A DNA stretch of 64,000 nucleotides from a virus, in IMG/VR virus record IMGVR_UViG_3300028274_000008, positions 1 to 64,000 of that record. One strand, 5' to 3'. The notes under the pieces were generated by a model. That model was not told where the DNA came from. It ran no database searches and worked only from the letters and a program-made list of their open reading frames with translations. Both the position numbers and the translations under genes were made by a program. Shown piece after piece: positions 39,437 to 54,453 of this stretch. How positions within the stretch are numbered: position 1 is the first letter of the stretch; the number at the start of each line of letters is the position of its first letter.

Positions 39437-40708
39437 ATGCCCAATATAACATTGACCCAAGACCAAGATAATGCTCTTAACTCTTTTCTTGATTTTCTTA
39501 ATCAACCAAAAGAGAAATACATGATAATCCAAGGAGCTGCTGGATGTGGTAAGAGTACCCTTATTAAATATCTGATGAGAGCACTGGAAGCTCAATATAA
39601 AATGTATGCACTCCTGCTGCAGACCAATAAAAAACAAAGTAAATTTGAAGTAAGGGTTTCAGCAACAACCAACCAGGCAGTCTCAGTACTTGAAGAATTA
39701 ACGAACTGTGATGCAACTACTATCCATTCTCTTCTTGGTTTAAAAGTTGTTAATAATATTAAAACTGGTAAAACTGAACTTGAACGTAAAAAAGATTATG
39801 CCCCTCTTTATAATAAATTATTTATAATTGATGAAGCCAGCATGATTGATGATAACTTATTAAAAGAAATTGATGCTACAGCTAAAAACTCTAAAATAGT
39901 TTTAATTGGAGATGAATGGCAACTTGCTCCAGTAGGACAAAAGATTGCAACCATGTCCACTCTTAATTTCAGAAAAGTTAAAATGAATAAGATTTTAAGA
40001 AATAGTGGTGCCATCATGCAGACGGGTGCACAATTCCGAGAGACAGCTGAAACAGGCATCTTTAAACCAATTAAACAAGATCCCACTGTTGCCCATGTTA
40101 CTGGATCCAAGTTTCAAAGATTAGTAGATGCCGCTTTCATGGATCCAAATTATGTAACCAATTCAATTAAAGTACTGGCTTGGACCAATGCCAGAGTACA
40201 GGCCTACAATGCTCATATCCGTCAAATCAACGGGTACGCCAAATTACTACAAGCTGGAGAATATGCAATTACTAATAATGCCCTTAATGAAAGAGGTTAT
40301 TTTTATAAAACAGATAGTTTTGTTAAAATTACTGATGCAAGCAGTGAACGAGAAAGATTAGGAGTACGCGGACGCAATATTGAAATCAATGGCAAATTAA
40401 TTGGTTTCATGGCAAATGATCCTCATGATGTTAAATTACTTTTAAAATCATTAGCTGCACAGAAAGAATGGACTGATTATTTCAGTGTTAAAGAGACTTG
40501 GTTTGACCTCCGACCAGCATATGCCAGTACAGTGCATAAAGCCCAAGGTAGGTCCTACAATACTGTATTTATTGACCTGGCAGATATAAGTAAATGCAGG
40601 GTTGCATCAGACGTTGCGAGAATGCTATATGTTGCCATCAGTCGCAGTAAACATCAGGTCTATTTATACGGCCAATTACCCCCTAAATATGGAGGTTACA
40701 AACCATAA
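39437..40708 (+). CDS. Dda-like SF1B DNA helicase
   Basis: A 423-residue helicase of the Dda/RecD2 type. Walker A GAAGCGKST (motif I) near residue 34, motif Ia (TTNQAV), motif II IIDEASMID, motif III GDEWQLAPVG, and motif V/VI STVHKAQGRSYN...YVAISRSKHQVYLYG. 5'-3' unwinding during replication, equivalent in position to N4 gp37. ATG after AGGAGTAACCA. Confidence 0.93.
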   Translation: MPNITLTQDQDNALNSFLDFLNQPKEKYMIIQGAAGCGKSTLIKYLMRALEAQYKMYALLLQTNKKQSKFEVRVSATTNQAVSVLEELTNCDATTIHSLLGLKVVNNIKTGKTELERKKDYAPLYNKLFIIDEASMIDDNLLKEIDATAKNSKIVLIGDEWQLAPVGQKIATMSTLNFRKVKMNKILRNSGAIMQTGAQFRETAETGIFKPIKQDPTVAHVTGSKFQRLVDAAFMDPNYVTNSIKVLAWTNARVQAYNAHIRQINGYAKLLQAGEYAITNNALNERGYFYKTDSFVKITDASSERERLGVRGRNIEINGKLIGFMANDPHDVKLLLKSLAAQKEWTDYFSVKETWFDLRPAYASTVHKAQGRSYNTVFIDLADISKCRVASDVARMLYVAISRSKHQVYLYGQLPPKYGGYKP

Positions 40709-40719
40709 GGAGTTGAACC

Positions 40720-41253
40720 ATGGATATGAATCCAATCCAAGCTAGGATGTTAATGATTAGACAGTTACAAAATAACATGCTTGCTTACTTATATTCCGCT
40801 CAGGAAAAGTCAGAAGTTAAACAACTCTGTAAAATAGCAATTGAAAACCAACTGTTATTAAAGTGTGATACAGCTTCTTTTACTTTTAATGGTCGAATGC
40901 ATGGATCAATTGATTCTGCAGTACCAACCAATAAAATAAACAAAGAACTACACCCTTCTTTATTAAAACAAGTATCTGACATATTAAGTAAACATACTTT
41001 TGATGCTACTGCTATTAAAACCCACATCAGTCATATGTTTTCCACTGTTTTAATGAAAGCCAAGCATGTTAATGATTTAAAGCGCCTATTACCTAATGCT
41101 TTTTTAACTCAAATTCGAGCAGTAGATCCAGATATATTTAATACTGGTGATCCACTTTCGGATCAAGAGATTGCTAGTATTCAAAAACACTCAGCAAAAA
41201 GTATCGCTTATATTAATGAGTTATGTTTAACTCGTTTATTATTAACCAAATAA
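40720..41253 (+). CDS. Protein of unknown function, 177 residues
   Basis: Helical, with GGAGTTGAACC before the ATG. It sits between helicase and DNA polymerase in the replication operon. No motif recognised. A replication-accessory role is inferred from context. Confidence 0.55.
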   Translation: MDMNPIQARMLMIRQLQNNMLAYLYSAQEKSEVKQLCKIAIENQLLLKCDTASFTFNGRMHGSIDSAVPTNKINKELHPSLLKQVSDILSKHTFDATAIKTHISHMFSTVLMKAKHVNDLKRLLPNAFLTQIRAVDPDIFNTGDPLSDQEIASIQKHSAKSIAYINELCLTRLLLTK

Positions 41254-41265
41254 CTGGAGTCAATC

Positions 41266-41697
41266 ATGAGAAAATTTGAAATTGAACATTTAACCAACAG
41301 AATTACACAAGTTATACAGTGCACTAAAGGAACCATAAGTACTTTTATTAATGCAAAAAGTAAACCAATAGCTTACACACAGCAAGAACGATTAGAGCTG
41401 ATCCGAGCAGGTAAAGGTATTTTAAAATCAAACACAGAATTAAAAGATGGTAATGGTTCTTACGCATCGGATTCAATGGCAGTACTTATTCGTTGTTACG
41501 AGTTTCCGGAAACTGCTACACAAAAAGCAAATAAAGCTTTTAATAAAAGACTAGTAGCAAAAAAAGATGATATATGGGCTGCTATTGATACAGTTAGTAA
41601 ACGTCTTTTGGATAATGCGGTATTAGGATTAATCCCTATTGAATCTCTTCCTCATGAGTTGGAAAAACTCAACGAAATGAGTGAATTAATTAAATAA
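41266..41697 (+). CDS. Protein of unknown function, 143 residues
   Basis: Helical, basic protein preceded by CTGGAGTCAATC. It has no recognised domain. It follows the previous unknown by 12 bases and is followed by a long stem-loop (41706-41796), suggesting the end of a sub-operon. Confidence 0.55.
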   Translation: MRKFEIEHLTNRITQVIQCTKGTISTFINAKSKPIAYTQQERLELIRAGKGILKSNTELKDGNGSYASDSMAVLIRCYEFPETATQKANKAFNKRLVAKKDDIWAAIDTVSKRLLDNAVLGLIPIESLPHELEKLNEMSELIK

Positions 41698-41705
41698 TTA
41701 ATCAC

Positions 41706-41796
41706 GCCTGTCTCAAGTATATATAATCCATAAGGAGTCAATGCAGTGAGGGCCTATACCATTGGATATACTTAAGGCTTTACCACCGAGACAGGC
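41706..41796 (+). promoter_or_regulatory. Long stem-loop carrying a ribosome-binding site in its loop
   Basis: GCCTGTCTC (41706-41714) pairs with GAGACAGGC (41788-41796), and AAGTATAT (41715-41722) with ATATACTT (41766-41773), giving a 17-bp continuous arm except for an unpaired segment on one side. The loop contains AAGGAGTCA plus ATG CAG TGA, a two-codon minicistron, and a GTG frame of nine codons. It may be a leader or a small RNA. Confidence 0.5.
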
Positions 41797-41819
41797 CACA
41801 ACTTTAAACAGGAGTAGCT

Positions 41820-42017
41820 ATGAAAGATCCTATAGAAATAACTGTAGAAATTTTAACAGAAACAGATGCCGCTTACAGGGTAACTGATACTGATGATCTT
41901 GACAGCAATATTTGGGTACCTAAATCTCAAATTGAACTATTACACCCAGCTGGTGTAGGGGATATAGTTACAATTGAAATGCCAGAATGGTTAGCTTTAG
42001 ATAAAGGTTTTATTTAA
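41820..42017 (+). CDS. Small acidic protein, 65 residues
   Basis: ATG after ACAGGAGTAGCT. Beta-rich, Asp/Glu/Thr-rich. It resembles small conserved N4-like proteins with the pattern WVPKSQIEL, of unknown function. Confidence 0.55.
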   Translation: MKDPIEITVEILTETDAAYRVTDTDDLDSNIWVPKSQIELLHPAGVGDIVTIEMPEWLALDKGFI

Positions 42018-42018
42018 T

Positions 42019-42192
42019 ATGAATGGTTATATGTGTTTTTATAAAAAGAAACAAACTGAAATATACGCAAATACGACTTTAGAGGCTCAGGAAAAAGCTG
42101 CTAAGTTTTTTAAAGCTAAAAAATCCTGGGAAGTGACAGTTGTTCTTGCAGAGAAAAATGGAAAACAAATAACCCATACTGCAGATTTTTAA
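42019..42192 (+). CDS. Small basic protein, 57 residues
   Basis: ATG directly after the preceding stop (one-base gap). Pattern CFYKKKQTEIYANTTLEAQEKAA..F resembles a small family found near DNA polymerase genes in N4-like phages and bacteria. No function known. Confidence 0.5.
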   Translation: MNGYMCFYKKKQTEIYANTTLEAQEKAAKFFKAKKSWEVTVVLAEKNGKQITHTADF

Positions 42193-42204
42193 ACAGGAGT
42201 AACT

Positions 42205-43161
42205 ATGCAACATATTCTTTTTGGTTCAGATTCTTCTTTAGTTTCTATTGCTATTTTAATTAAAACTACGGCTTTTGCTAAAAGTACAATCCAAAGGGCT
42301 TATGTAACCCCATCAACTATTCCTTCTGAAAAATTTATAGCTTTTGATTTAGCATATACTTTAAATAATAAATGTCCTGCTAAACTGGCTAAAGAACATC
42401 TTGAAGACTTACTGCCTGAAATAAGTATTTTAAATGTAACTACTCTTTTGGTTTGTGATCCAATTTACTTTAAAATATTAACCAAATTAAAAAAGGTTAA
42501 TGACTGTTATGGGCATATTTATGAATGTGCCATTAAAGATTATGAATACTTAGATATTATTTTAGCACCCAACTACCAATCAGTACTTTATAATCCTGCA
42601 ATACAAAGTAAGATCGATACAGCCAATGAAACCCTCATTGATCATGTGGGCAACACTTATGTAGTTCCAGGAACTAATGTTATTCATTCTGCCTATTATC
42701 CAGAAACTATATCCGCTATTAAAGCAGCTTTACATGATCTGCAGCAATATCCAGCATTAACATGTGATATTGAAGCAACTAGTTTAAAATTCTATAAAGC
42801 AAAGATAGAAACAATAGCTTTTGCTTGGGATAAACATAATTTTATTGCTTTTTGTGTAGGAAGAGACAACACCACAAATACACAAATTCAAATACAAACC
42901 ATGTTACGAAAGTTTTTTACGTTGTACAAAGGTACAACAATATGGCATAATGCAAATTATGATCATAAAGTTTTAATTTATAATCTATGGATGCAACATT
43001 TAGCTGATTATAAAAATATGATTAAAGGAATTAAAATTATGACTAAAAACTTTGAAGACACGAAACTAATAGCTTATCTTGCAACTAATAATGCTATTCA
43101 AAACAAGTTAAGTTTAAAAGAACTGTCTTCCCCTTTTATGGGTAATTATGGAGTACTTTAA
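42205..43161 (+). CDS. DNA polymerase, N-terminal fragment (Exo I and Exo II)
   Basis: A 318-residue fragment of an N4 gp39-type family A DNA polymerase. After about 180 residues of an N-terminal region it carries exonuclease motif I (CDIEAT, Asp188/Glu190) and motif II (WHNANYDHK, Asp253). The frame ends shortly after SLKELSSPFMGNYGV. The missing Exo III is on the fragment at 43813. The break was caused by the homing gene at 43163, so proofreading would need the two chains to assemble. Confidence 0.9.
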   Translation: MQHILFGSDSSLVSIAILIKTTAFAKSTIQRAYVTPSTIPSEKFIAFDLAYTLNNKCPAKLAKEHLEDLLPEISILNVTTLLVCDPIYFKILTKLKKVNDCYGHIYECAIKDYEYLDIILAPNYQSVLYNPAIQSKIDTANETLIDHVGNTYVVPGTNVIHSAYYPETISAIKAALHDLQQYPALTCDIEATSLKFYKAKIETIAFAWDKHNFIAFCVGRDNTTNTQIQIQTMLRKFFTLYKGTTIWHNANYDHKVLIYNLWMQHLADYKNMIKGIKIMTKNFEDTKLIAYLATNNAIQNKLSLKELSSPFMGNYGVL

Positions 43162-43162
43162 A

Positions 43163-43813
43163 ATGAAACAAAAATTAGTAGGTAAACGTTTTGGTAAATT
43201 ATTAGTCATTAATGAAGAACCAGAAAGAGCAAACAATTCAAGGTATTTTAAAGTACTTTGTGATTGTGGTAATACCCCTGTAATGCATATGTCTAGTATA
43301 AAACGTAAAATAGCAGGTATTAAAAGTTGTGGTTGTGCTAATAAACATAATGGTACTGGGACCCGTTTACACAGTATTTGGCAAAATATGAAACAACGCT
43401 GTTTAAATCCAAAAAATACTAATTATAGAAATTATGGAAAAAAAGGTATCACAATCTGTACTCTTTGGTTAGAAGATTTTACTTTGTTTCGTACTTGGGC
43501 TTTAAATAGTGGATACCACGCTAATTTAACTATAGACAGAAAAAACGGAAAATTAGGATATACACCATTAAATTGTAGATGGGTAGACCAAATAACACAA
43601 ACTCGTAATTCTTATAAACGAAGGAAAACCAATTCAAAATATATTGGAGTATGTTTTTACCAACGTACTAAATTATGGGCAGCATATATTAATGTTGACA
43701 AAAAACGTATCCATTTAGGTTTTCACTCTTCCGAATATAAAGCGGCTATAGCTAGAGATTCTTATATTGTAGCACATAATTTACAAAATTTTATTATGAA
43801 TGAGGTGTTATAG
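43163..43813 (+). CDS. Free-standing HNH/AP2-type homing endonuclease splitting DNA polymerase
   Basis: About 216 residues from the ATG at 43163, which has GGAG nine bases upstream within the polymerase 3' end. N-terminal zinc-binding motif (CDCG ... SCGC) and the family signature LHSIWQNMKQRCLNP, YGKKGI, then a C-terminal AP2-like domain (YIGVCFYQRTKLWAAYI). The gene fills nearly all the gap between the polymerase fragments, so no group I intron can fit. Its stop overlaps the GTG of the next polymerase fragment. Confidence 0.9.
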   Translation: MKQKLVGKRFGKLLVINEEPERANNSRYFKVLCDCGNTPVMHMSSIKRKIAGIKSCGCANKHNGTGTRLHSIWQNMKQRCLNPKNTNYRNYGKKGITICTLWLEDFTLFRTWALNSGYHANLTIDRKNGKLGYTPLNCRWVDQITQTRNSYKRRKTNSKYIGVCFYQRTKLWAAYINVDKKRIHLGFHSSEYKAAIARDSYIVAHNLQNFIMNEVL

Positions 43814-45447
43814 TGGGTGTTACTGCAAAAATAGCAACTCCAGATTTATTAAAGTATAATGGTCAAGATTGCTTGGCTACCTGGTACGTTAATGAGACCC
43901 ATAAACCAACAATGATAGCTGATCAACAAGAGCAACTATATGAAGAATTATTTAAACCAACAGTAATTACTCTCTTGCAGACTGAGCTGTGTGGCATGCC
44001 AATTAATCCAAAAAAAGTACAATTTGCTAAACTTCATTTAGTTTCTATTGAACATACCTGTTTAGATTATTTTAATAATTCTAAATTAATCCAAGATTTT
44101 CATTTTACTCAATTAATAGCATTAGCAGAAAAGATGACTGCTAAAGCTAAAAAGAAAATTTACGATATCACTGATCCAATCATTGCCCGGGAAGTATTTA
44201 ATCCTGGCAGTGATACCCAACTCAGGGCTTTAATCTTTGATTATATGGGTTACGATATAATCAATCTTACAAAAGGTAAACAAGCCTCTACCAGCAAGGG
44301 TACCATTGAGAAGTTAATTAATCATGCCAAGACTCCTGAACATAAAGAAATATTTGAACATCTTATTAAATTAGCTGATGTCAGTATCTTACTTTCAACT
44401 TTTATTCCTTCAATGGAGAAAGCACAAAGATTACCTGATGGTAGTTACCGGTTATATGGTAACTTTAATCTTGGCGGAACCCAAAGCTTAAGGCTATCCA
44501 GTTCAGATCCTAATCTGCAAAATATTCCATCACATTCAATATTTGCTCAAATCATTAAAGAATGCTTCGAACCGATTATTGGTTGGTTATTCTTTGGTTC
44601 AGACTTTGATGCACTGGAAGATAAAACAAATGCTCTAATAACTAAAGATCCAAATAAATTAAAAATCTATACTGATGGTTTTTGTGGCCACTGTCTTCGG
44701 GCATTCTCTTACTTTGGCGATAAAATGAATGGTATTATTGAAACAGTTACTTCTATTAATTCCATTAAAAAACTCTATCCTGATCTAAGACAAGATTCTA
44801 AAGCCCCTACCTTTGCACTTACCTACGGGGGAAGTTTTCATACTTTAATGAAGAATTGTGGATTTACTAAACCTCAAGCCAAACAAATTGAAAAGATGTA
44901 CCACCAGCTTTACACCGTAGCAGATAAATGGGTTGATAATCTTGTAGAGCAAGCCAAAAAAATAGGATACATTCCATTAGCATTTGGTGGCCGGATACGT
45001 ACCCCATTGCTCGCTAAAACCGTAGGGAAGGTCAAAGTACCCTTTGCAGCTCAAAAGGAGGCTAGGAGTGCAGGAAATGCTGCTACACAGTCATATTGTT
45101 TCCTAACCCAACGTGCAATGAATGAATTCAGAGAAAGAGTATGGGCTTCACCATATATTTACACTATATTACCTGCTGCTACAATTCATGATGCAGCTTA
45201 TTACGTGGGACAAGATAATGCTGATCTGATCAAATGGGCCAATGATAATCTCATTGATTGTATGGCTTGGCAGCAATTACCTGAACTAATGCATCCTACG
45301 ATTAAAATAAGCTCTGGATTAGAGATTTACTGGCCTTCCTGGGGTAATAAGGTCAAAATACCCAATAACGCTTCTAAACAGCAAATTAAAGCCCTTTGTT
45401 TGAAAGCTGAACAAGAAGAAAAGGCTAAACAATTAATTACACCATAA
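43813..45447 (+). CDS. DNA polymerase, C-terminal fragment (Exo III and polymerase domain)
   Basis: A 544-residue fragment with GTG start (ribosome-binding site GAGGTG). Exonuclease motif III (YNGQDC, Tyr15/Asp19) is at the very N-terminus. Polymerase motif A is in SDFDALEDKT, motif B in RQDSKAPTFALTYGG, and motif C in IHDAAYYV. Together with 42205-43161 it totals 862 residues, normal for N4-type DNA polymerase. Start at GTG overlaps the homing gene stop. Confidence 0.92.
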   Translation: MGVTAKIATPDLLKYNGQDCLATWYVNETHKPTMIADQQEQLYEELFKPTVITLLQTELCGMPINPKKVQFAKLHLVSIEHTCLDYFNNSKLIQDFHFTQLIALAEKMTAKAKKKIYDITDPIIAREVFNPGSDTQLRALIFDYMGYDIINLTKGKQASTSKGTIEKLINHAKTPEHKEIFEHLIKLADVSILLSTFIPSMEKAQRLPDGSYRLYGNFNLGGTQSLRLSSSDPNLQNIPSHSIFAQIIKECFEPIIGWLFFGSDFDALEDKTNALITKDPNKLKIYTDGFCGHCLRAFSYFGDKMNGIIETVTSINSIKKLYPDLRQDSKAPTFALTYGGSFHTLMKNCGFTKPQAKQIEKMYHQLYTVADKWVDNLVEQAKKIGYIPLAFGGRIRTPLLAKTVGKVKVPFAAQKEARSAGNAATQSYCFLTQRAMNEFRERVWASPYIYTILPAATIHDAAYYVGQDNADLIKWANDNLIDCMAWQQLPELMHPTIKISSGLEIYWPSWGNKVKIPNNASKQQIKALCLKAEQEEKAKQLITP

Positions 45448-45457
45448 GGAGTAAATT

Positions 45458-45814
45458 ATGTCAGATCTAAGTCATTACCCAAAAACAGATAAATTTGAAA
45501 TTATAGATACCATTGGTACCCCTCACCCATTTTGTATTACACCCCGTCATGTAGTATTTGCCTCTGATCATCATGGAGGTATGCTGGGAAAAGAGGCAAT
45601 AGAAGCCTATGAAAAATCAAAAGGATCCTGTCATTGTGGGGTAAAAGGATGCCAATTATCTTTTGCAGAACATGAGACTGCTTTGCTTATTGCAGTAGAT
45701 GACTCCCGGGAATTAGGGGCGATACCAGAATTACCTACTTATTTATTAAAATGTAAACCTATCTGTGAAAAAGATGGTTATGCTGGTTTTGCTTTTATGA
45801 AAAAGAAATCATGA
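45458..45814 (+). CDS. His/Cys-rich protein, 118 residues
   Basis: ATG after AAGGAGTAAATT. A HVVFASDHHGG segment near residue 30 and a CHCGVKGC cluster near 55 suggest metal binding. It is common in phages as a hypothetical protein behind DNA polymerase. Overlaps the next gene by 4 bases. Confidence 0.55.
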   Translation: MSDLSHYPKTDKFEIIDTIGTPHPFCITPRHVVFASDHHGGMLGKEAIEAYEKSKGSCHCGVKGCQLSFAEHETALLIAVDDSRELGAIPELPTYLLKCKPICEKDGYAGFAFMKKKS

Positions 45815-46014
45815 CACCTGAAGACATAGACTTACATAAACTTGCTATTGGTCAATTAGACCATACTGACATGGCAATCATACATCGATTTGCTCCTTCG
45901 GAACACCCATTCTTTACAGTGGATACCGGTCTATCTAAATATTTCAATGATAGATTTAAAAAACTTGGAGGGATGACTCCAGAAATATCTAAATTAATAG
46001 GATGGCAAATGTGA
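45811..46014 (+). CDS. Small protein, 67 residues
   Basis: Coupled to the previous gene by ATGA. It is acidic with a Phe/His-rich segment (FAPSEHPFFTVD) reminiscent of small phage proteins of unknown function. Overlaps the next start by 13 bases. Confidence 0.5.
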   Translation: MTPEDIDLHKLAIGQLDHTDMAIIHRFAPSEHPFFTVDTGLSKYFNDRFKKLGGMTPEISKLIGWQM

Positions 46015-46220
46015 CTCTTATCTGTCCATTCTGTAAAAGCAAAGCAGTAAGATATTATGCAAAACGCACACGCGGAGGACTGAGACCTCTTTCGCATATT
46101 GTCTTTTGTATAAGTTGTGAGGCTAAAGGACCTAAAGCTCTAACCAAAAAAGAAGCTATTAAATTATGGAGCATAACACTATCTACTGGCGAAAGGAAAA
46201 TATATGATCTTATCAGTTGA
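46002..46220 (+). CDS. Lar-like restriction-alleviation zinc-ribbon protein
   Basis: A 72-residue zinc ribbon with CPFC near residue 9 and CISC near residue 38, followed by EAIKLW. This is the pattern of Lar/restriction-alleviation-type and related small proteins (CPFCGs...C..C...AI..WN). Function as an anti-restriction factor is possible but not shown here. Confidence 0.6.
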   Translation: MANVTLICPFCKSKAVRYYAKRTRGGLRPLSHIVFCISCEAKGPKALTKKEAIKLWSITLSTGERKIYDLIS

Positions 46221-46461
46221 AATACCAAAAAGATGTTATTGTGATAATACTCATCAAAACAATCAAACTGTTTGTATAGAATGTTGGGTATTGGGTTATA
46301 GGTATAATTCACCATTTTATCCACGAGTTTGGTGGAACCCTATTTTAACTAATATACACGCAGTAAAAATAAAAACTGAATATGCTAAAGGAAATATTTC
46401 ACAAAGAACTTTAGCTAAAAAATATAATATAAGTCAAAGTAACATGCATAATCAATCTTAA
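46204..46461 (+). CDS. Small HTH protein
   Basis: An 85-residue protein. The N-terminal half has a CYCD..C..C cluster; the C-terminal half is a helix-turn-helix (YAKGNISQRTLAKKYNISQS) like those of small regulators. Overlaps the preceding gene by 17 bases. Likely DNA binding. Confidence 0.6.
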   Translation: MILSVEIPKRCYCDNTHQNNQTVCIECWVLGYRYNSPFYPRVWWNPILTNIHAVKIKTEYAKGNISQRTLAKKYNISQSNMHNQS

Positions 46462-46481
46462 AGCTTATAAGGAGGCTTAAT

Positions 46482-47078
46482 ATGGTACTTTCAGTTGATC
46501 CAGGATTATCTAATTATGGTTATGCCGTTTGGAATGAGTATGGAGAGATCTGTGATACTGGTCTTCTTCAAACCAAAAAAACTAAAAGAAAGAATATATT
46601 GGTAGCTGATGACATGGTGCACAGGATGGCTAGGCTTACCGTTGATCTTGAATGGGTTATCAGAGCATTTAAGATCAAAGCAGTCATTGGAGAACGCCCA
46701 GGATTTGCCAGTCAGAATTCAGCAGCAATGAGAGATATGTCAGCCAGTATGGCTGTATCAGTGGCTGTATTTACAATGCTTAATTTATCAATGGAATGGG
46801 CAACCCCAGAAGAAGTTAAAGTAGCTTTTACTGGTAAAAAAACAGCTTCTAAAAAAGAAATGATGATAAAGGTTTGTAAACGGCATTCTTGGAATATTAC
46901 TACTAAAAGGGTTAATTTTAAAAATTCTAAACAACTTAAACGTTTAGATAATATTTACCATCCAATGGGTGTACCAATGGGAGCCAATAAATTTGAACAT
47001 ATTGCTGATGCAGTTGCTGCAGCTCATGCCTTAAAGAACGGTAACATTATTAAAATGTATTTAAATAAAAGAAGATAA
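46482..47078 (+). CDS. RuvC-like Holliday junction resolvase
   Basis: A 198-residue RNase H-fold nuclease: LSVDPGLSNYGYAV (catalytic Asp6), a second acidic residue in VIGERP near 70, and C-terminal HIADAVAAAHA with the last catalytic Asp. ATG after AAGGAGGC. Resolves recombination intermediates before packaging. An alternative is that it provides a nuclease to the guide-array system, but nothing shows this. Confidence 0.88.
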   Translation: MVLSVDPGLSNYGYAVWNEYGEICDTGLLQTKKTKRKNILVADDMVHRMARLTVDLEWVIRAFKIKAVIGERPGFASQNSAAMRDMSASMAVSVAVFTMLNLSMEWATPEEVKVAFTGKKTASKKEMMIKVCKRHSWNITTKRVNFKNSKQLKRLDNIYHPMGVPMGANKFEHIADAVAAAHALKNGNIIKMYLNKRR

Positions 47079-47084
47079 CCAATT

Positions 47085-47162
47085 TAAGGGCAACACTACA
47101 CTGGGTGGGGGATTAAAATTAAAGTTTCCTCATATAGTTTCTTTGATTCCCAGTTGCCCTTA
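47085..47162 (+). terminator. Long stem-loop after the resolvase gene
   Basis: TAAGGGCAAC (47085-47094) and GTTGCCCTTA (47153-47162) pair perfectly over 10 bases with a 58-nt loop. Inner TGGG/CCCA can pair. CTTTTAAACC follows. Same design as at 39150 and 41706. Confidence 0.5.
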
Positions 47163-47187
47163 CTTTTAAACCAAAAAGGAAAATATT

Positions 47188-47475
47188 ATGCATATTATAA
47201 TAGGAGATCTTGTATTACGCAGTGGACCTAATGATTTTGTAATTTCTGATAAAGAACCCTTCATAAGTAAAAAAGGAATAAAAACATATTACAATGCTAC
47301 TTATTACCCTACAATAGAATCAGCCTTAAATAACGTGTTAAAGAGACGTTTACTCAAAAGTGATGCTACTACCCTCACAGAACTCAGAAACGAATTGTTG
47401 GCACATAGACAGGAGCTGAGTGAGATATTTAAAGAGATTATTACAACCAACCCTGAACCAAAGGAAAAAGAATGA
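47188..47475 (+). CDS. Protein of 95 residues, unknown
   Basis: ATG after AAAAAGGAAAATATT. First half beta-rich, second half a helix with many Leu, Glu and Arg. The fold resembles small phage helper proteins with YYPTIESALNNVLKR-like segments. It overlaps the next gene by 4 bases. Confidence 0.55.
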   Translation: MHIIIGDLVLRSGPNDFVISDKEPFISKKGIKTYYNATYYPTIESALNNVLKRRLLKSDATTLTELRNELLAHRQELSEIFKEIITTNPEPKEKE

Positions 47476-47792
47476 AAAAATTAACTTACTATTTGCCCTT
47501 AGTGGGCCCTAAGACCACTGCAGTATTTTTGATGTATAATGAAGATACTTTTAAGGCTGTTGCTAGAGGAGTTGCCTTCTGTAGTGACAAAGATCAATTC
47601 AATAAAAAAAGAGGAAGATCTATTGCTGCTGGTAGAGCATGTAAAGCTTTCATGAATGCTGAGACCTGTCCCAATAATAAAATTCGAAGAAAGACTGTAC
47701 CTGCTATAGATTTCACTAATAAATGCACTTACCTCCCTACTCTTACTGAATTTGAAAAGACTCTCATAGCCAAAATAAATAATTTAGATTAA
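47472..47792 (+). CDS. Protein of 106 residues, unknown
   Basis: Coupled to the previous gene by ATGA. Basic with a central KKRGRSIAAGRACKA segment resembling a nucleic-acid contact loop. No family recognised. Confidence 0.5.
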   Translation: MKKLTYYLPLVGPKTTAVFLMYNEDTFKAVARGVAFCSDKDQFNKKRGRSIAAGRACKAFMNAETCPNNKIRRKTVPAIDFTNKCTYLPTLTEFEKTLIAKINNLD

Positions 47793-47796
47793 TAAT

Positions 47797-48105
47797 ATGA
47801 GTGTATTTGAAGTAGGAAGATTTATAAACCGAAAATATGAAAAACATCCACACATGCATCGATGGCCTGCTGAAAAGACATTACCAATTGCTTTTGGGTT
47901 AAAAGAACTTGAACTCCAACAAGAACCCGATAATATCACTGAAAATGTTTCAGATGAGCATGGAAGATACGAAGAAATTAATAATAGAGGTATTTATGGT
48001 TTCTACAGAGAATCTGTTTGTCTTACTGAATACAGACAAGGTAAAGTAATTCAGCCAGCCCATACTTTATCTGAAATAGGTCAAGTGATACTCCGATGTG
48101 ATTAA
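47797..48105 (+). CDS. Protein of 102 residues, unknown
   Basis: Start at ATG four bases after the previous stop, with weak ribosome-binding signal, so probably reinitiated. Composition acidic and aromatic. No motif seen. Confidence 0.45.
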   Translation: MSVFEVGRFINRKYEKHPHMHRWPAEKTLPIAFGLKELELQQEPDNITENVSDEHGRYEEINNRGIYGFYRESVCLTEYRQGKVIQPAHTLSEIGQVILRCD

Positions 48106-48142
48106 TAATATATTTAAATAATATTTAATTTAAATTCCACGC

Positions 48143-48276
48143 AGTCTTGTCGTACAGGGTACTATCGTCGACCCGAGCTAAAGCTCTCTCTCCTCTGCAC
48201 CCTTCCCGACCGACTGCTGGAGTGAGCACAGAGGGCGCGAGCGAAGCGAAGGCGACCGGTAAGTGCGTCTACGACA
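48143..48276. repeat. GC-rich structured island
   Basis: TGTCGTA (48148-48154) pairs with TACGACA (48270-48276), and CCTCTG (48192-48197) with CAGAGG (48229-48234), inside a GC-rich block. Segment GGGCGCGAGCGAAGCGAAGG resembles, on the opposite strand, the island at 23615-23714. Possibly a shared mobile repeat or a stable RNA. Confidence 0.5.
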
Positions 48277-48379
48277 GCAGGAAGGTCATATAAATTATAT
48301 ATAAAACCTCTTTATATACTATATGTGTACATGACAGAATGTTTATTGGCAATAAATTCAGATAGTTACAAAAGACAAA

Positions 48380-48429
48380 ATCAAGTATATATTTTTGTTT
48401 TTAAAGTAAAATTCAAATATATACTTGAT
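48380..48429. promoter_or_regulatory. 15-bp inverted repeat upstream of winged-helix gene
   Basis: ATCAAGTATATATTT (48380-48394) is perfectly complementary to AAATATATACTTGAT (48415-48429), with a 20-base spacer, followed by CTTTTAACAGG. It could be an operator or a terminator hairpin. Confidence 0.55.
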
Positions 48430-48463
48430 CTTTTAACAGGTACCAGATAAGATGGCATAAACG

Positions 48464-48503
48464 AAATAAGACACAGTATCCCCATACTTTAATAGTCTTA
48501 TTT
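48464..48503. promoter_or_regulatory. 9-bp inverted repeat just before the winged-helix gene
   Basis: AAATAAGAC (48464-48472) with GTCTTATTT (48495-48503), 22-base spacer, ending 27 bases before the ATG. It is an operator candidate for autoregulation by the protein encoded downstream. Confidence 0.45.
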
Positions 48504-48529
48504 TCTAAATAATGAGGTCACTATAACAG

Positions 48530-48976
48530 ATGCCACAAATACAAAGCAACATTAATATTATTGAGATTAAAGGTAAGCGTCTCATTGTCAGTGAAACGCA
48601 TAAAGAAAAACTCGGTAAATTCCAAGCAATAGGGAGAATTAATAGTATGTACAGTAAAAAGGAAACAAACTTGGATATTTTTAATTTATTGGATCAAGTG
48701 TCTAAACCAGCTTATTCTTTATTTAATCAATTAAAAAGTAACCGCAATCCTACTAATAATATTTCTTTTATAAAAACATCACAGATGAATAAAAGCCAAA
48801 AGACTATGTTCAGCTCCAGGATCTTAGAATTAAAAAAACAAAATATTATTAAAAAAGCATTCACCATTGACCGCACTAAACCAATTCAAAAAGGCTCTTA
48901 CATAATTAACCCAAATCTGATACTTTGTCCGGGACATCAAGAAGAAGCCCTTAGAATATGGGACTATTTAAAATAA
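48530..48976 (+). CDS. Winged-helix DNA-binding protein, RepL-like paralogue
   Basis: A 148-residue protein. Residues about 60-130 look like a winged helix with the C-terminal signature KGSYIINPNLILCPG, similar to the protein at 23736 (HYLINPRAVLS). Preceded by two inverted repeats. It could regulate its own operon or act in replication. Confidence 0.65.
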   Translation: MPQIQSNINIIEIKGKRLIVSETHKEKLGKFQAIGRINSMYSKKETNLDIFNLLDQVSKPAYSLFNQLKSNRNPTNNISFIKTSQMNKSQKTMFSSRILELKKQNIIKKAFTIDRTKPIQKGSYIINPNLILCPGHQEEALRIWDYLK

Positions 48977-48989
48977 AAAGGAGTAACAC

Positions 48990-49250
48990 ATGACTGACAT
49001 GAACATCTTACCGCTCTATTCAAATCTTATTAAAGATCCAGATAGTAAATCAGTTTTACCTGAAGATAATTTTTATATAGCTAAAAGATTTGGGGATCAA
49101 TGGCATATTATTGAAAGTGCTATTGATGTCTCCCGGGCAGCTGCTGCTCGAATGATCATTATGAAGCAAGACCACAAAGCCCATCCTGAAACCCGGCCCA
49201 CCGATTATCGTATATTTAAAAAAGGCTTAAATAAAATTATAACTAAATGA
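48990..49250 (+). CDS. Protein of 86 residues, unknown
   Basis: ATG after AAAGGAGTAACAC. Mostly helical with a Pro/Asp-rich N-terminus. No motif seen. Directly downstream of the winged-helix gene. Confidence 0.5.
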   Translation: MTDMNILPLYSNLIKDPDSKSVLPEDNFYIAKRFGDQWHIIESAIDVSRAAAARMIIMKQDHKAHPETRPTDYRIFKKGLNKIITK

Positions 49251-49264
49251 TATATTTAGATGAC

Positions 49265-49280
49265 TGTCTCAAATGAGACA
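49265..49280 (+). terminator. Short hairpin
   Basis: TGTCTC-AAAT-GAGACA, perfect 6-bp stem. It has no T-run. It may be an attenuator between two small genes. Confidence 0.35.
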
Positions 49281-49312
49281 CATTAACAGTATAACTACTT
49301 ATTGAGAGGACT

Positions 49313-53408: not shown

Positions 53409-53525
53409 GTGGTCGATCAAAATGATAATCTTGTATTAATTGTTGGTTCAAGTGGTGGTGGTAAATCAGCATCATTACGGGATATTAAAGATCCCCAAAA
53501 TGTATATTACTTCAATTGTGAAGCT
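53409..53525 (+). CDS. Sak4-like ATPase, exon 1
   Basis: Starts at GTG behind AAAGGAGGTTAAGT; encodes 39 residues ending YYFNCEA. Walker A GSSGGGKSA at residues 13-21. The frame stops right after. Joined to exon 2 at 54454 it gives a 243-residue ATPase (FNCEA followed by NKKLPF), like Sak4-type or N4 gp42-like recombination/replication ATPases. Confidence 0.85.
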
Positions 53526-54453
53526 AAATAATTGGCTTCGTTAAACCCATTGAATTGCTGGAAACCCCAAACAAATAATGTTGTGGGCAATCAGCAGCGA
53601 AGACTTAACGTGTCTTGACAGAGCAGTTTAAATATGGTACTTTGAACAACTTCTCAATTAAATAAAGGAGAAATTGTATGAAAGAATACATAGAAGAAAC
53701 TGAAACTGGAATTTACAGAATAACCGAAAGAGGTAAGATCTTTTCCCAAAGTAAGCTTAAAATACCTATTGTGGGAAAAGGTATGCAACATACAGGAAAA
53801 TTCCACATGATAACAAAACCTGAAAGGGAACTAACATATACTCTCAATAATAGAGGGTATTTATCAGTAGGAATTATGAAAAAAACTTTTATGGTGCATA
53901 GATTAATCGCTAAAGTATTTGTAATTAATCCGTGTAATAAGCCTCAAGTGAACCATATTGATGGTAACAAACTAAATAATTGCGCTTTAAACTTGGAATG
54001 GTGTACAGCCCAAGAAAATATCCAACATGCTTATAGAATTGGTATAAATAAAGGATGTCTTGGGCTAAAACGCATATATAGTAGTGCCCAAATTAAAGCT
54101 AAATGTCTTGCAAATTTAAAGAATAAATCTAAACTGACTCCTGATGAAGTCAAATATGTTAGAAAAGTATATATTGCAAGAGATAAAAATTTTAGTTGTA
54201 CTGCATTAGCTACACAATTTAATGTTAGTATCGCCGCCATGAGTAAAATTGTAAAAAGACAGTCCTATCAACACATTAAGTAACGTTCAACGACTATCGA
54301 AAGCATCTTATATAAGATAAGCAAGTAGAGTACACCCAAGTGGGTGGAAGCGGTGGGACGTAGAAATACGTATGATATAGTCTACTCTCATATGAAAGTA
54401 TGAGCAGAGTTAAAAGCTCGATATTAGCGTAACGAACTAATATGAATATAAGG
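53526..54453 (+). ncRNA. Group I intron with HNH gene, in the Sak4-like ATPase
   Basis: 928 nt. P1: exon end GAAGCU pairs with GGCUUC (53534-53539), with U-G at the splice site. Core: GCUGGAAACCCC, GUGGGCAAUCAGCAGC, GACUAU (54291) and AUAGUC (54377) for P7, GAGUACACCCAAGUGGGUGG for P8. Ends in G with in-frame junction. Closely related to the intron at 33926 by its 3' core. Confidence 0.88.
53678..54283 (+). CDS. HNH homing endonuclease in intron 2
   Basis: A 201-residue protein behind AAAGGAGAAATT. HNH core NHIDGNKLNNCALNLEWCT ... NIQHA near residues 92-115. The C-terminal 60 residues (LTPDEVKYVRKVY ... CTALATQFNVSIAAMSKIV) form a helix-turn-helix for DNA recognition. Typical intron homing enzyme; distinct from the one in intron 1. 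Confidence 0.92.
   Translation: MKEYIEETETGIYRITERGKIFSQSKLKIPIVGKGMQHTGKFHMITKPERELTYTLNNRGYLSVGIMKKTFMVHRLIAKVFVINPCNKPQVNHIDGNKLNNCALNLEWCTAQENIQHAYRIGINKGCLGLKRIYSSAQIKAKCLANLKNKSKLTPDEVKYVRKVYIARDKNFSCTALATQFNVSIAAMSKIVKRQSYQHIK

What the first reader, a model, noticed from the sequence alone, without database searches (positions are those of the whole stretch)
42205..45447. DNA polymerase split inside its proofreading domain by a homing gene
Exo I (Asp188, Glu190) and Exo II (Asp253) are on a 318-residue protein, while Exo III (Tyr15, Asp19) and the whole polymerase domain are on a 544-residue one. The gap of about 650 bp is nearly all the homing endonuclease ORF, so it cannot be a group I intron, and stop codons exclude an intein. 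Both fragments have their own ribosome-binding sites: GAGGTG and GTG for the second, GGAG for the homing gene. The proofreading active site must be rebuilt from two chains. Comparable split enzymes are known, for example Aeh1 ribonucleotide reductase split by mobE.
Basis: partly seen in the sequence, partly recalled or inferred. Interest (0 to 1): 0.82.

Follow-up and report, generated by a model that had tools for sequence, protein, structure and literature searches.

The report
Phage DNA polymerase split by homing gene
In an N4-like phage from a metagenome, a mobile endonuclease gene has cut the DNA polymerase gene in two inside its proofreading domain, so the error-correcting site probably has to be rebuilt from two separate proteins; such splits are known in this phage family, but this position is rare and arose at least twice.

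Summary
In an N4-like (Schitoviridae) phage record, the family A DNA polymerase is encoded as polN (318 aa, Exo I and Exo II) and polC (544 aa, Exo III plus the whole polymerase domain), separated by a complete HNH/AP2 homing endonuclease gene. A second assembly with 90-99% identity elsewhere carries the same split, so it is not an assembly error. No group I intron is detectable (a control intron in a related phage is), and the insert is essentially all endonuclease ORF. Split inteins are ruled out.

The closest relative, L118 (872 aa), is intact. 124 of 126 distinct polymerases covering the site, and all 464 matching phage records, are uninterrupted there. The one other interrupted case, L121, sits elsewhere in the tree and has two small non-endonuclease genes at the site. 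So this loop was probably broken twice, and a split can exist without the homing gene beside it.

Homing-gene splits of N4-like polymerases are already published or deposited, but in the polymerase domain; some of those fragments carry conserved extra tails, which the exo-site split lacks. All catalytic residues are kept and no rate acceleration is seen. Two-chain proofreading is likely but untested.

The parts
42205..43161 (+). polN: N-terminal part of family A DNA polymerase, 318 aa; holds Exo I (D188, E190) and Exo II (N249, D253); ends ...MGNYGVL*
   Evidence: ORF with GGAG ribosome-binding site; PF01612 2.7e-5, PHROG 17 1.7e-38; about 34-47% identity to intact N4-like polymerases over residues 1-316
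43148..43813 (+). HNH homing endonuclease gene (HNH region plus C-terminal AP2-like domain); likely start ATG 43163, whose GGAG at 43149-43154 lies inside the polN codons for Gly-Val
   Evidence: PHROG 374 6.5e-60; full-length relatives free-standing in phiA41 (38.6%) and L138 (40%); AF2 model with AP2 domains among the top Foldseek hits, though weak, E about 0.09
43802..43808 (+). GAGGTG ribosome-binding site for polC, supplied by the 3' end of the endonuclease gene
   Evidence: sequence
43813..45447 (+). polC: C-terminal part of DNA polymerase, 544 aa, GTG start; holds Exo III (Y15, D19) and motifs A (D264, E269), B (R326, K330, Y338) and C (H459, D460)
   Evidence: PF00476 7e-36; PHROG 17 1.5e-77; alignment with intact relatives; only PF00476 match in the record

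Best explanation
A free-standing HNH/AP2 homing endonuclease gene inserted into the flexible loop just before the Exo III helix of an N4-like family A DNA polymerase, breaking it into polN and polC. The three genes are most likely translated separately from one message: the endonuclease uses a GGAG that lies within polN codons, and polC uses a GAGGTG at the endonuclease 3' end. polN (the RNase H-like exonuclease core) and polC (the last exonuclease helix with Y15/D19, plus the polymerase domain) most likely associate non-covalently through the native interface, giving a two-chain polymerase with an intact polymerase site and a proofreading site built from both chains. Shown: sequence anatomy, absence of a detectable intron or intein, retained catalytic residues, intact sister gene, a second occurrence of the split. 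Inferred: association, activity, and homing by the endonuclease.
For: Clean anatomy with every catalytic residue kept. Second assembly with the same split. Closest relative L118 intact, joined with the window at support 1.0. The split maps to residues 328-342 of intact L003, a low-confidence loop (pLDDT block 76 in a model of mean 91.9) between helices 324-327 and 343-370. Window and L118 show similar numbers of unique changes: N 26 vs 31, exo 14 vs 11, C 40 vs 35. No other family A or B DNA polymerase in the record. No group I intron at the site, with a control intron found in pVa5. Precedent: phage 25 gp43A/43B co-purify with polymerase activity and split Aeh1 NrdA is functional (PMC2988022).
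Against: No biochemical or transcript data. The rate test cannot detect recent relaxation, because most of the branch may predate the split. The exo-site fragments lack the extra tails seen in polymerase-domain splits, so association rests on the native interface alone. The record is incomplete (66.6 kb; its giant virion RNA polymerase ORF runs off the end), so another polymerase cannot be fully excluded.
Confidence: 0.7

Rival explanations
1. polC works alone as an exonuclease-deficient polymerase and polN is a leftover on its way to loss.
For: polC contains the complete polymerase domain; no docking tails at this split.
Against: polN is a complete ORF in both assemblies with all exo residues intact and no excess of changes relative to the intact sister. 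L121, apparently split independently, also keeps all five exo residues.
Confidence: 0.13
2. The insert is a self-splicing intron, so one full-length polymerase is made.
For: Homing genes often lie in group I introns, and introns found only by RNA sequencing occur: ICP1 tape-measure and terminase (PMC10448857). Earlier authors suggested introns for N4-like HNH-split genes (PMC3670811).
Against: All but a few bases of the insert is the endonuclease ORF, homologous over its length to free-standing genes. No RF00028 match at the site even at E up to 10, whereas a real N4-like intron scores 99 bits.
Confidence: 0.05
3. The locus is a decaying pseudogene in a lineage that uses another polymerase.
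For: The record is not complete.
Against: Both frames open in two assemblies; all catalytic residues kept; no second family A or B polymerase in the record.
Confidence: 0.06
4. Assembly error or a rare population variant.
For: Metagenomic origin.
Against: The same junctions in a second contig that differs by up to several percent elsewhere; breakpoints coincide with complete, overlapping genes with ribosome-binding sites.
Confidence: 0.02
5. Trans-splicing by a split intein joins the two chains.
For: Split inteins flanking homing genes are known in phages (fractured genes; cited within PMC6892783).
Against: polN ends two residues after the homology and polC starts within the loop; there is no sequence for intein halves.
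Confidence: 0.01

Closest known systems
HNH-split DNA polymerases of N4-like phages (Pollock, Pylas, U1G, PGN829.1, Shigella phage B2, Vibrio phages phi 1 and JA-1)
   Same: Same polymerase family, HNH genes, separate ORFs, no recognisable intron in the loci tested
   Different: Their inserts lie in the polymerase domain (L003 positions about 500, 570, 603, 622, 641-652); several carry conserved N-tails and C-heads. The window is split in the exonuclease domain and has no tails
T4-like gp43A/gp43B of Aeromonas phages 25 and 44RR
   Same: Replicative polymerase in two chains, associated with a homing gene in one phage and an untranslated spacer in the other; chains of phage 25 co-purify with polymerase activity (PMC2988022)
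   Different: Family B polymerase; different endonuclease family (seg); exact split position not checked here
Aeh1 NrdA split by mobE
   Same: Homing endonuclease creates a functional genes-in-pieces enzyme (PMC2988022)
   Different: Different enzyme and endonuclease; from memory, its assembly uses element-derived tails, absent here
L121, IMGVR_UViG_3300002231_000753
   Same: Same split loop: polN ends GNYGVF*, Exo III on the next fragment
   Different: Insert is two small genes without endonuclease homology; a second HNH split makes three polymerase pieces; separate branch of the tree
PhAPEC7 polymerase, annotated as intron-interrupted
   Same: HNH gene within an N4-like polymerase
   Different: Palm site near L003 570; annotated as an intron, although no Rfam intron was found

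Membership tests
Genes-in-pieces created by a homing endonuclease | Intact homologous gene in relatives, insertion at a discrete site | tested here: met
   L118 intact 872 aa, 57.5% identical; 124 of 126 distinct polymerases and 464 of 464 phage records uninterrupted
Genes-in-pieces created by a homing endonuclease | Intervening ORF is a homing endonuclease | tested here: met
   PHROG 374 6.5e-60; relatives free-standing. By sequence only; nuclease and homing activity not tested
Genes-in-pieces created by a homing endonuclease | Fragments separately translated, with no splicing | tested here: inconclusive
   Separate start signals and no intron found; no RNA data
Genes-in-pieces created by a homing endonuclease | Fragments assemble into active enzyme | not testable with these tools
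   Needs biochemistry
N4-like (Schitoviridae) family A DNA polymerase | Exo motifs I-III and polymerase motifs A, B, C of the family | tested here: met
   All 14 residues checked match the family; neighbouring helicase, exonuclease, primase and RNA polymerase genes are of N4-like families
Group I intron | Conserved catalytic core (RF00028) | tested here: not met
   No match at the site at E up to 10; control intron in pVa5 found
Intein or split intein | Intein sequence in frame next to the extein halves | tested here: not met
   polN and polC end and start within a few residues of the homology; stop codons between
HNH endonuclease with AP2 domain (IPA-HNH type, PMC10448857) | HNH region plus C-terminal AP2 domain | tested here: inconclusive
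   PHROG 374 HNH is strong, but AP2 at 163-202 has E 0.0046, below the Pfam cut-off; AP2 structures are among the top Foldseek hits, E about 0.09. Direct comparison with the ICP1 genes was not made

The most novel reading that the evidence does not exclude
The loop before Exo III is a natural fission point of N4-like polymerases, broken independently at least twice, and the two-chain form can exist without the homing gene; proofreading then resides partly on a dissociable subunit, so error correction could vary with the polN:polC ratio.
Probability: 0.1. Interest if true: 0.75.

Novelty: new variant of a known kind. Interest (0 to 1): 0.47.

Why it matters
It would be a natural split of a proofreading active site in a family A polymerase, with an intact sister gene, a second apparently independent split at the same loop, and a set of otherwise similar polymerases split elsewhere with added tails. 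That makes it testable how split replicative enzymes reassemble with and without docking tails, and whether proofreading survives. For annotation, such genes should not be called pseudogenes or introns by default.

Tried and rejected
Group I intron: rejected by lack of space and negative Rfam scans with a working control. Rfam gathering scans of 15 other split polymerase loci found no intron either. Intein or split intein: no sequence for it. Degenerate polymerase: the odd residues in polC (for example GGTQSLRLSSS) are shared with intact L118, so they are clade features, not decay. Common ancestry of the window and L121 splits: disfavoured, since their common ancestor spans 117 of 124 tips, almost all intact at this site; support at that node is weak, but the window-L118 pairing has 1.0. 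Recent loss of constraint: only 6 differences between the two assemblies, 2 of them amino-acid changes, too few to conclude. Sequence search of solved structures for the endonuclease found nothing; its model gave only weak AP2 hits. The genome collection scan gave one N4-like polymerase (L197), interrupted at a polymerase-domain site. My tblastn junction query had one mistyped first residue; this does not affect the result.

Full report
What is there. The window is part of a 66,617-base IMG/VR virus record. Its helicase, RNA polymerase subunit, primase, exonuclease and capsid genes match families found in N4-like phages, and the left end is a truncated giant ORF at the position of the N4 virion RNA polymerase. 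At 42205-45447 three overlapping or abutting ORFs lie in one direction: polN (318 aa), an HNH gene, and polC (544 aa). polN and polC match adjacent parts of PHROG 17, DNA polymerase (profile positions 514-782 and 805-1256), and polC holds the whole PF00476 domain.

Boundaries. Intact relatives read GNYA-QEEINDIT-RIPLAELLEYNLVD (N4) or GNYAEDTTDTSKIPIKDLLTYNLRD (L118). The window reads ...MGNYGVL* and then (GTG)GVTAKIATPDLLKYNGQD. So the gene was opened in the variable loop just ahead of Exo III, with at most a few loop residues lost. GTG 43813 is the first in-frame start and keeps Y15 and D19. It has GAGGTG a few bases upstream, inside the end of the HNH gene. The HNH gene probably starts at ATG 43163 with GGAG nine bases upstream, and that GGAG is part of the Gly-Val codon pair of polN. 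L121 has the same GGAGT before its own inserted ORF.

Not an artefact. A second contig (131 kb; itself apparently a join of an N4-like genome with another phage) shares about 92-99% identity with the window in blocks and carries the identical split, with six substitutions in 3,243 bases, four of them synonymous, and none in the HNH gene.

Not an intron or intein. The polN stop to polC start distance is 651 bp and the HNH ORF fills it. The HNH protein is homologous over its length to free-standing genes in phiA41 and L138. Rfam scans found no group I intron at the site with gathering or relaxed thresholds, while the published intron of the N4-like phage pVa5 was found at 99 bits in the same way. 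The two chains carry no extra sequence that could be intein halves.

How rare is this site? A tblastn query across the loop matched 464 phage records, all uninterrupted. In IMG/VR, 126 distinct polymerases (under 98.5% identity, including a few isolates) have both sides of the loop; only the window and L121 are interrupted there. Interruptions elsewhere are frequent: at least five sites in the polymerase domain, near L003 positions 500, 570, 603, 622 and 641-652, including deposited genomes annotated as split (Pollock, U1G, B2) or as intron-containing (PhAPEC7). HNH splits of the N4-like DNA polymerase were reported in 2013 and thought to be possible introns (PMC3670811).

Two events. In a tree of 124 polymerases the window pairs with intact L118 (support 1.0) inside a clade of six whose other members are intact at this site (support 1.0). 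L121 groups elsewhere with intact L082, L174 and L189 (support 0.97 for the four). Two insertions into the same loop is the simplest reading. In L121 the insert consists of a 67-aa and a 168-aa ORF, the second of a family (PHROG 5434) of unknown function found in other phages. L121 also has a second HNH split in the palm, so its polymerase is in three pieces. Either a homing gene made the L121 break and was replaced, or other genes can be inserted there; in both cases the broken form exists without the endonuclease next to it.

Structure. An AlphaFold2 model of intact L003 (mean pLDDT 91.9) has the family A fold; the closest solved structures are phage G20c Pol I and Klenow-type fragments. The break falls in a loop at 328-342, the least confident stretch of that region, between a short helix and the long Exo III helix 343-370. 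The exonuclease core therefore stays on polN and its last helix, with Y15 and D19, stays on polC. Docking of polN against that helix and the polymerase domain would restore the site; this is inference.

Selection. All exo and polymerase catalytic residues checked are present in the window and in L121. Against four outgroups, window and L118 have similar numbers of unique changes in N, exo and C parts (26/31, 14/11, 40/35). This gives no sign of decay but has little power if the break is recent.

Tails. Polymerase-domain splits at about 622 and 641-652 add about 27-53 residues to the N fragment and about 9-29 to the C fragment, and the N-tails of the two sites are related in sequence for at least two members (profile E 3e-9 and 7e-6 in a small test set with shuffled controls; best shuffle 0.007). 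They have no intein hallmarks by eye. They recall the tails that, from memory, help the Aeh1 NrdA pieces assemble; that comparison was not tested. The exo-site split has none, so if it works it works through the native interface.

Verdict. A real homing-gene split at an unusual place in a polymerase family where such splits are common. Two-chain proofreading is the most likely outcome, supported by the precedent of phage 25 gp43A/43B (PMC2988022), but not demonstrated.

Noticed in passing
L008:3847-3978 (Pollock), L197:5669-5797, L094:5859-5990, L083-L099 at L003 positions 622 and 641-652: N4-like polymerases split in the polymerase domain carry 27-53 aa tails on the N fragment and short heads on the C fragment; related tails occur at two different insertion sites, suggesting portable docking peptides linked to the homing genes.
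   Followed up: partly
L121:4001-8199: DNA polymerase in three pieces: an exo-site break filled by two small non-endonuclease genes and a palm break filled by an HNH/AP2 gene.
   Followed up: yes
L127, L167, L188, L023: Other N4-like polymerases with two insertions each, all in the polymerase domain.
   Followed up: no
53474-53676 and 54184-54404: Two weak, below-threshold matches to the group I intron family downstream of the primase gene (19.5 and 21.6 bits).
   Followed up: no
L012-L018 (IMGVR_UViG_3300024299_000001): 131-kb contig looks like a join of this N4-like phage with a different phage that has its own polymerase-like 654-aa ORF and a 3,275-aa protein; the halves share short repeats and the contig ends overlap by 115 bases.
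   Followed up: partly
window 39548-49311 against L017: Identity between the two related phages varies in blocks from about 92% to 99.85% and is highest over 39548-49311, which contains the split polymerase; this would fit recent exchange around the homing gene.
   Followed up: no
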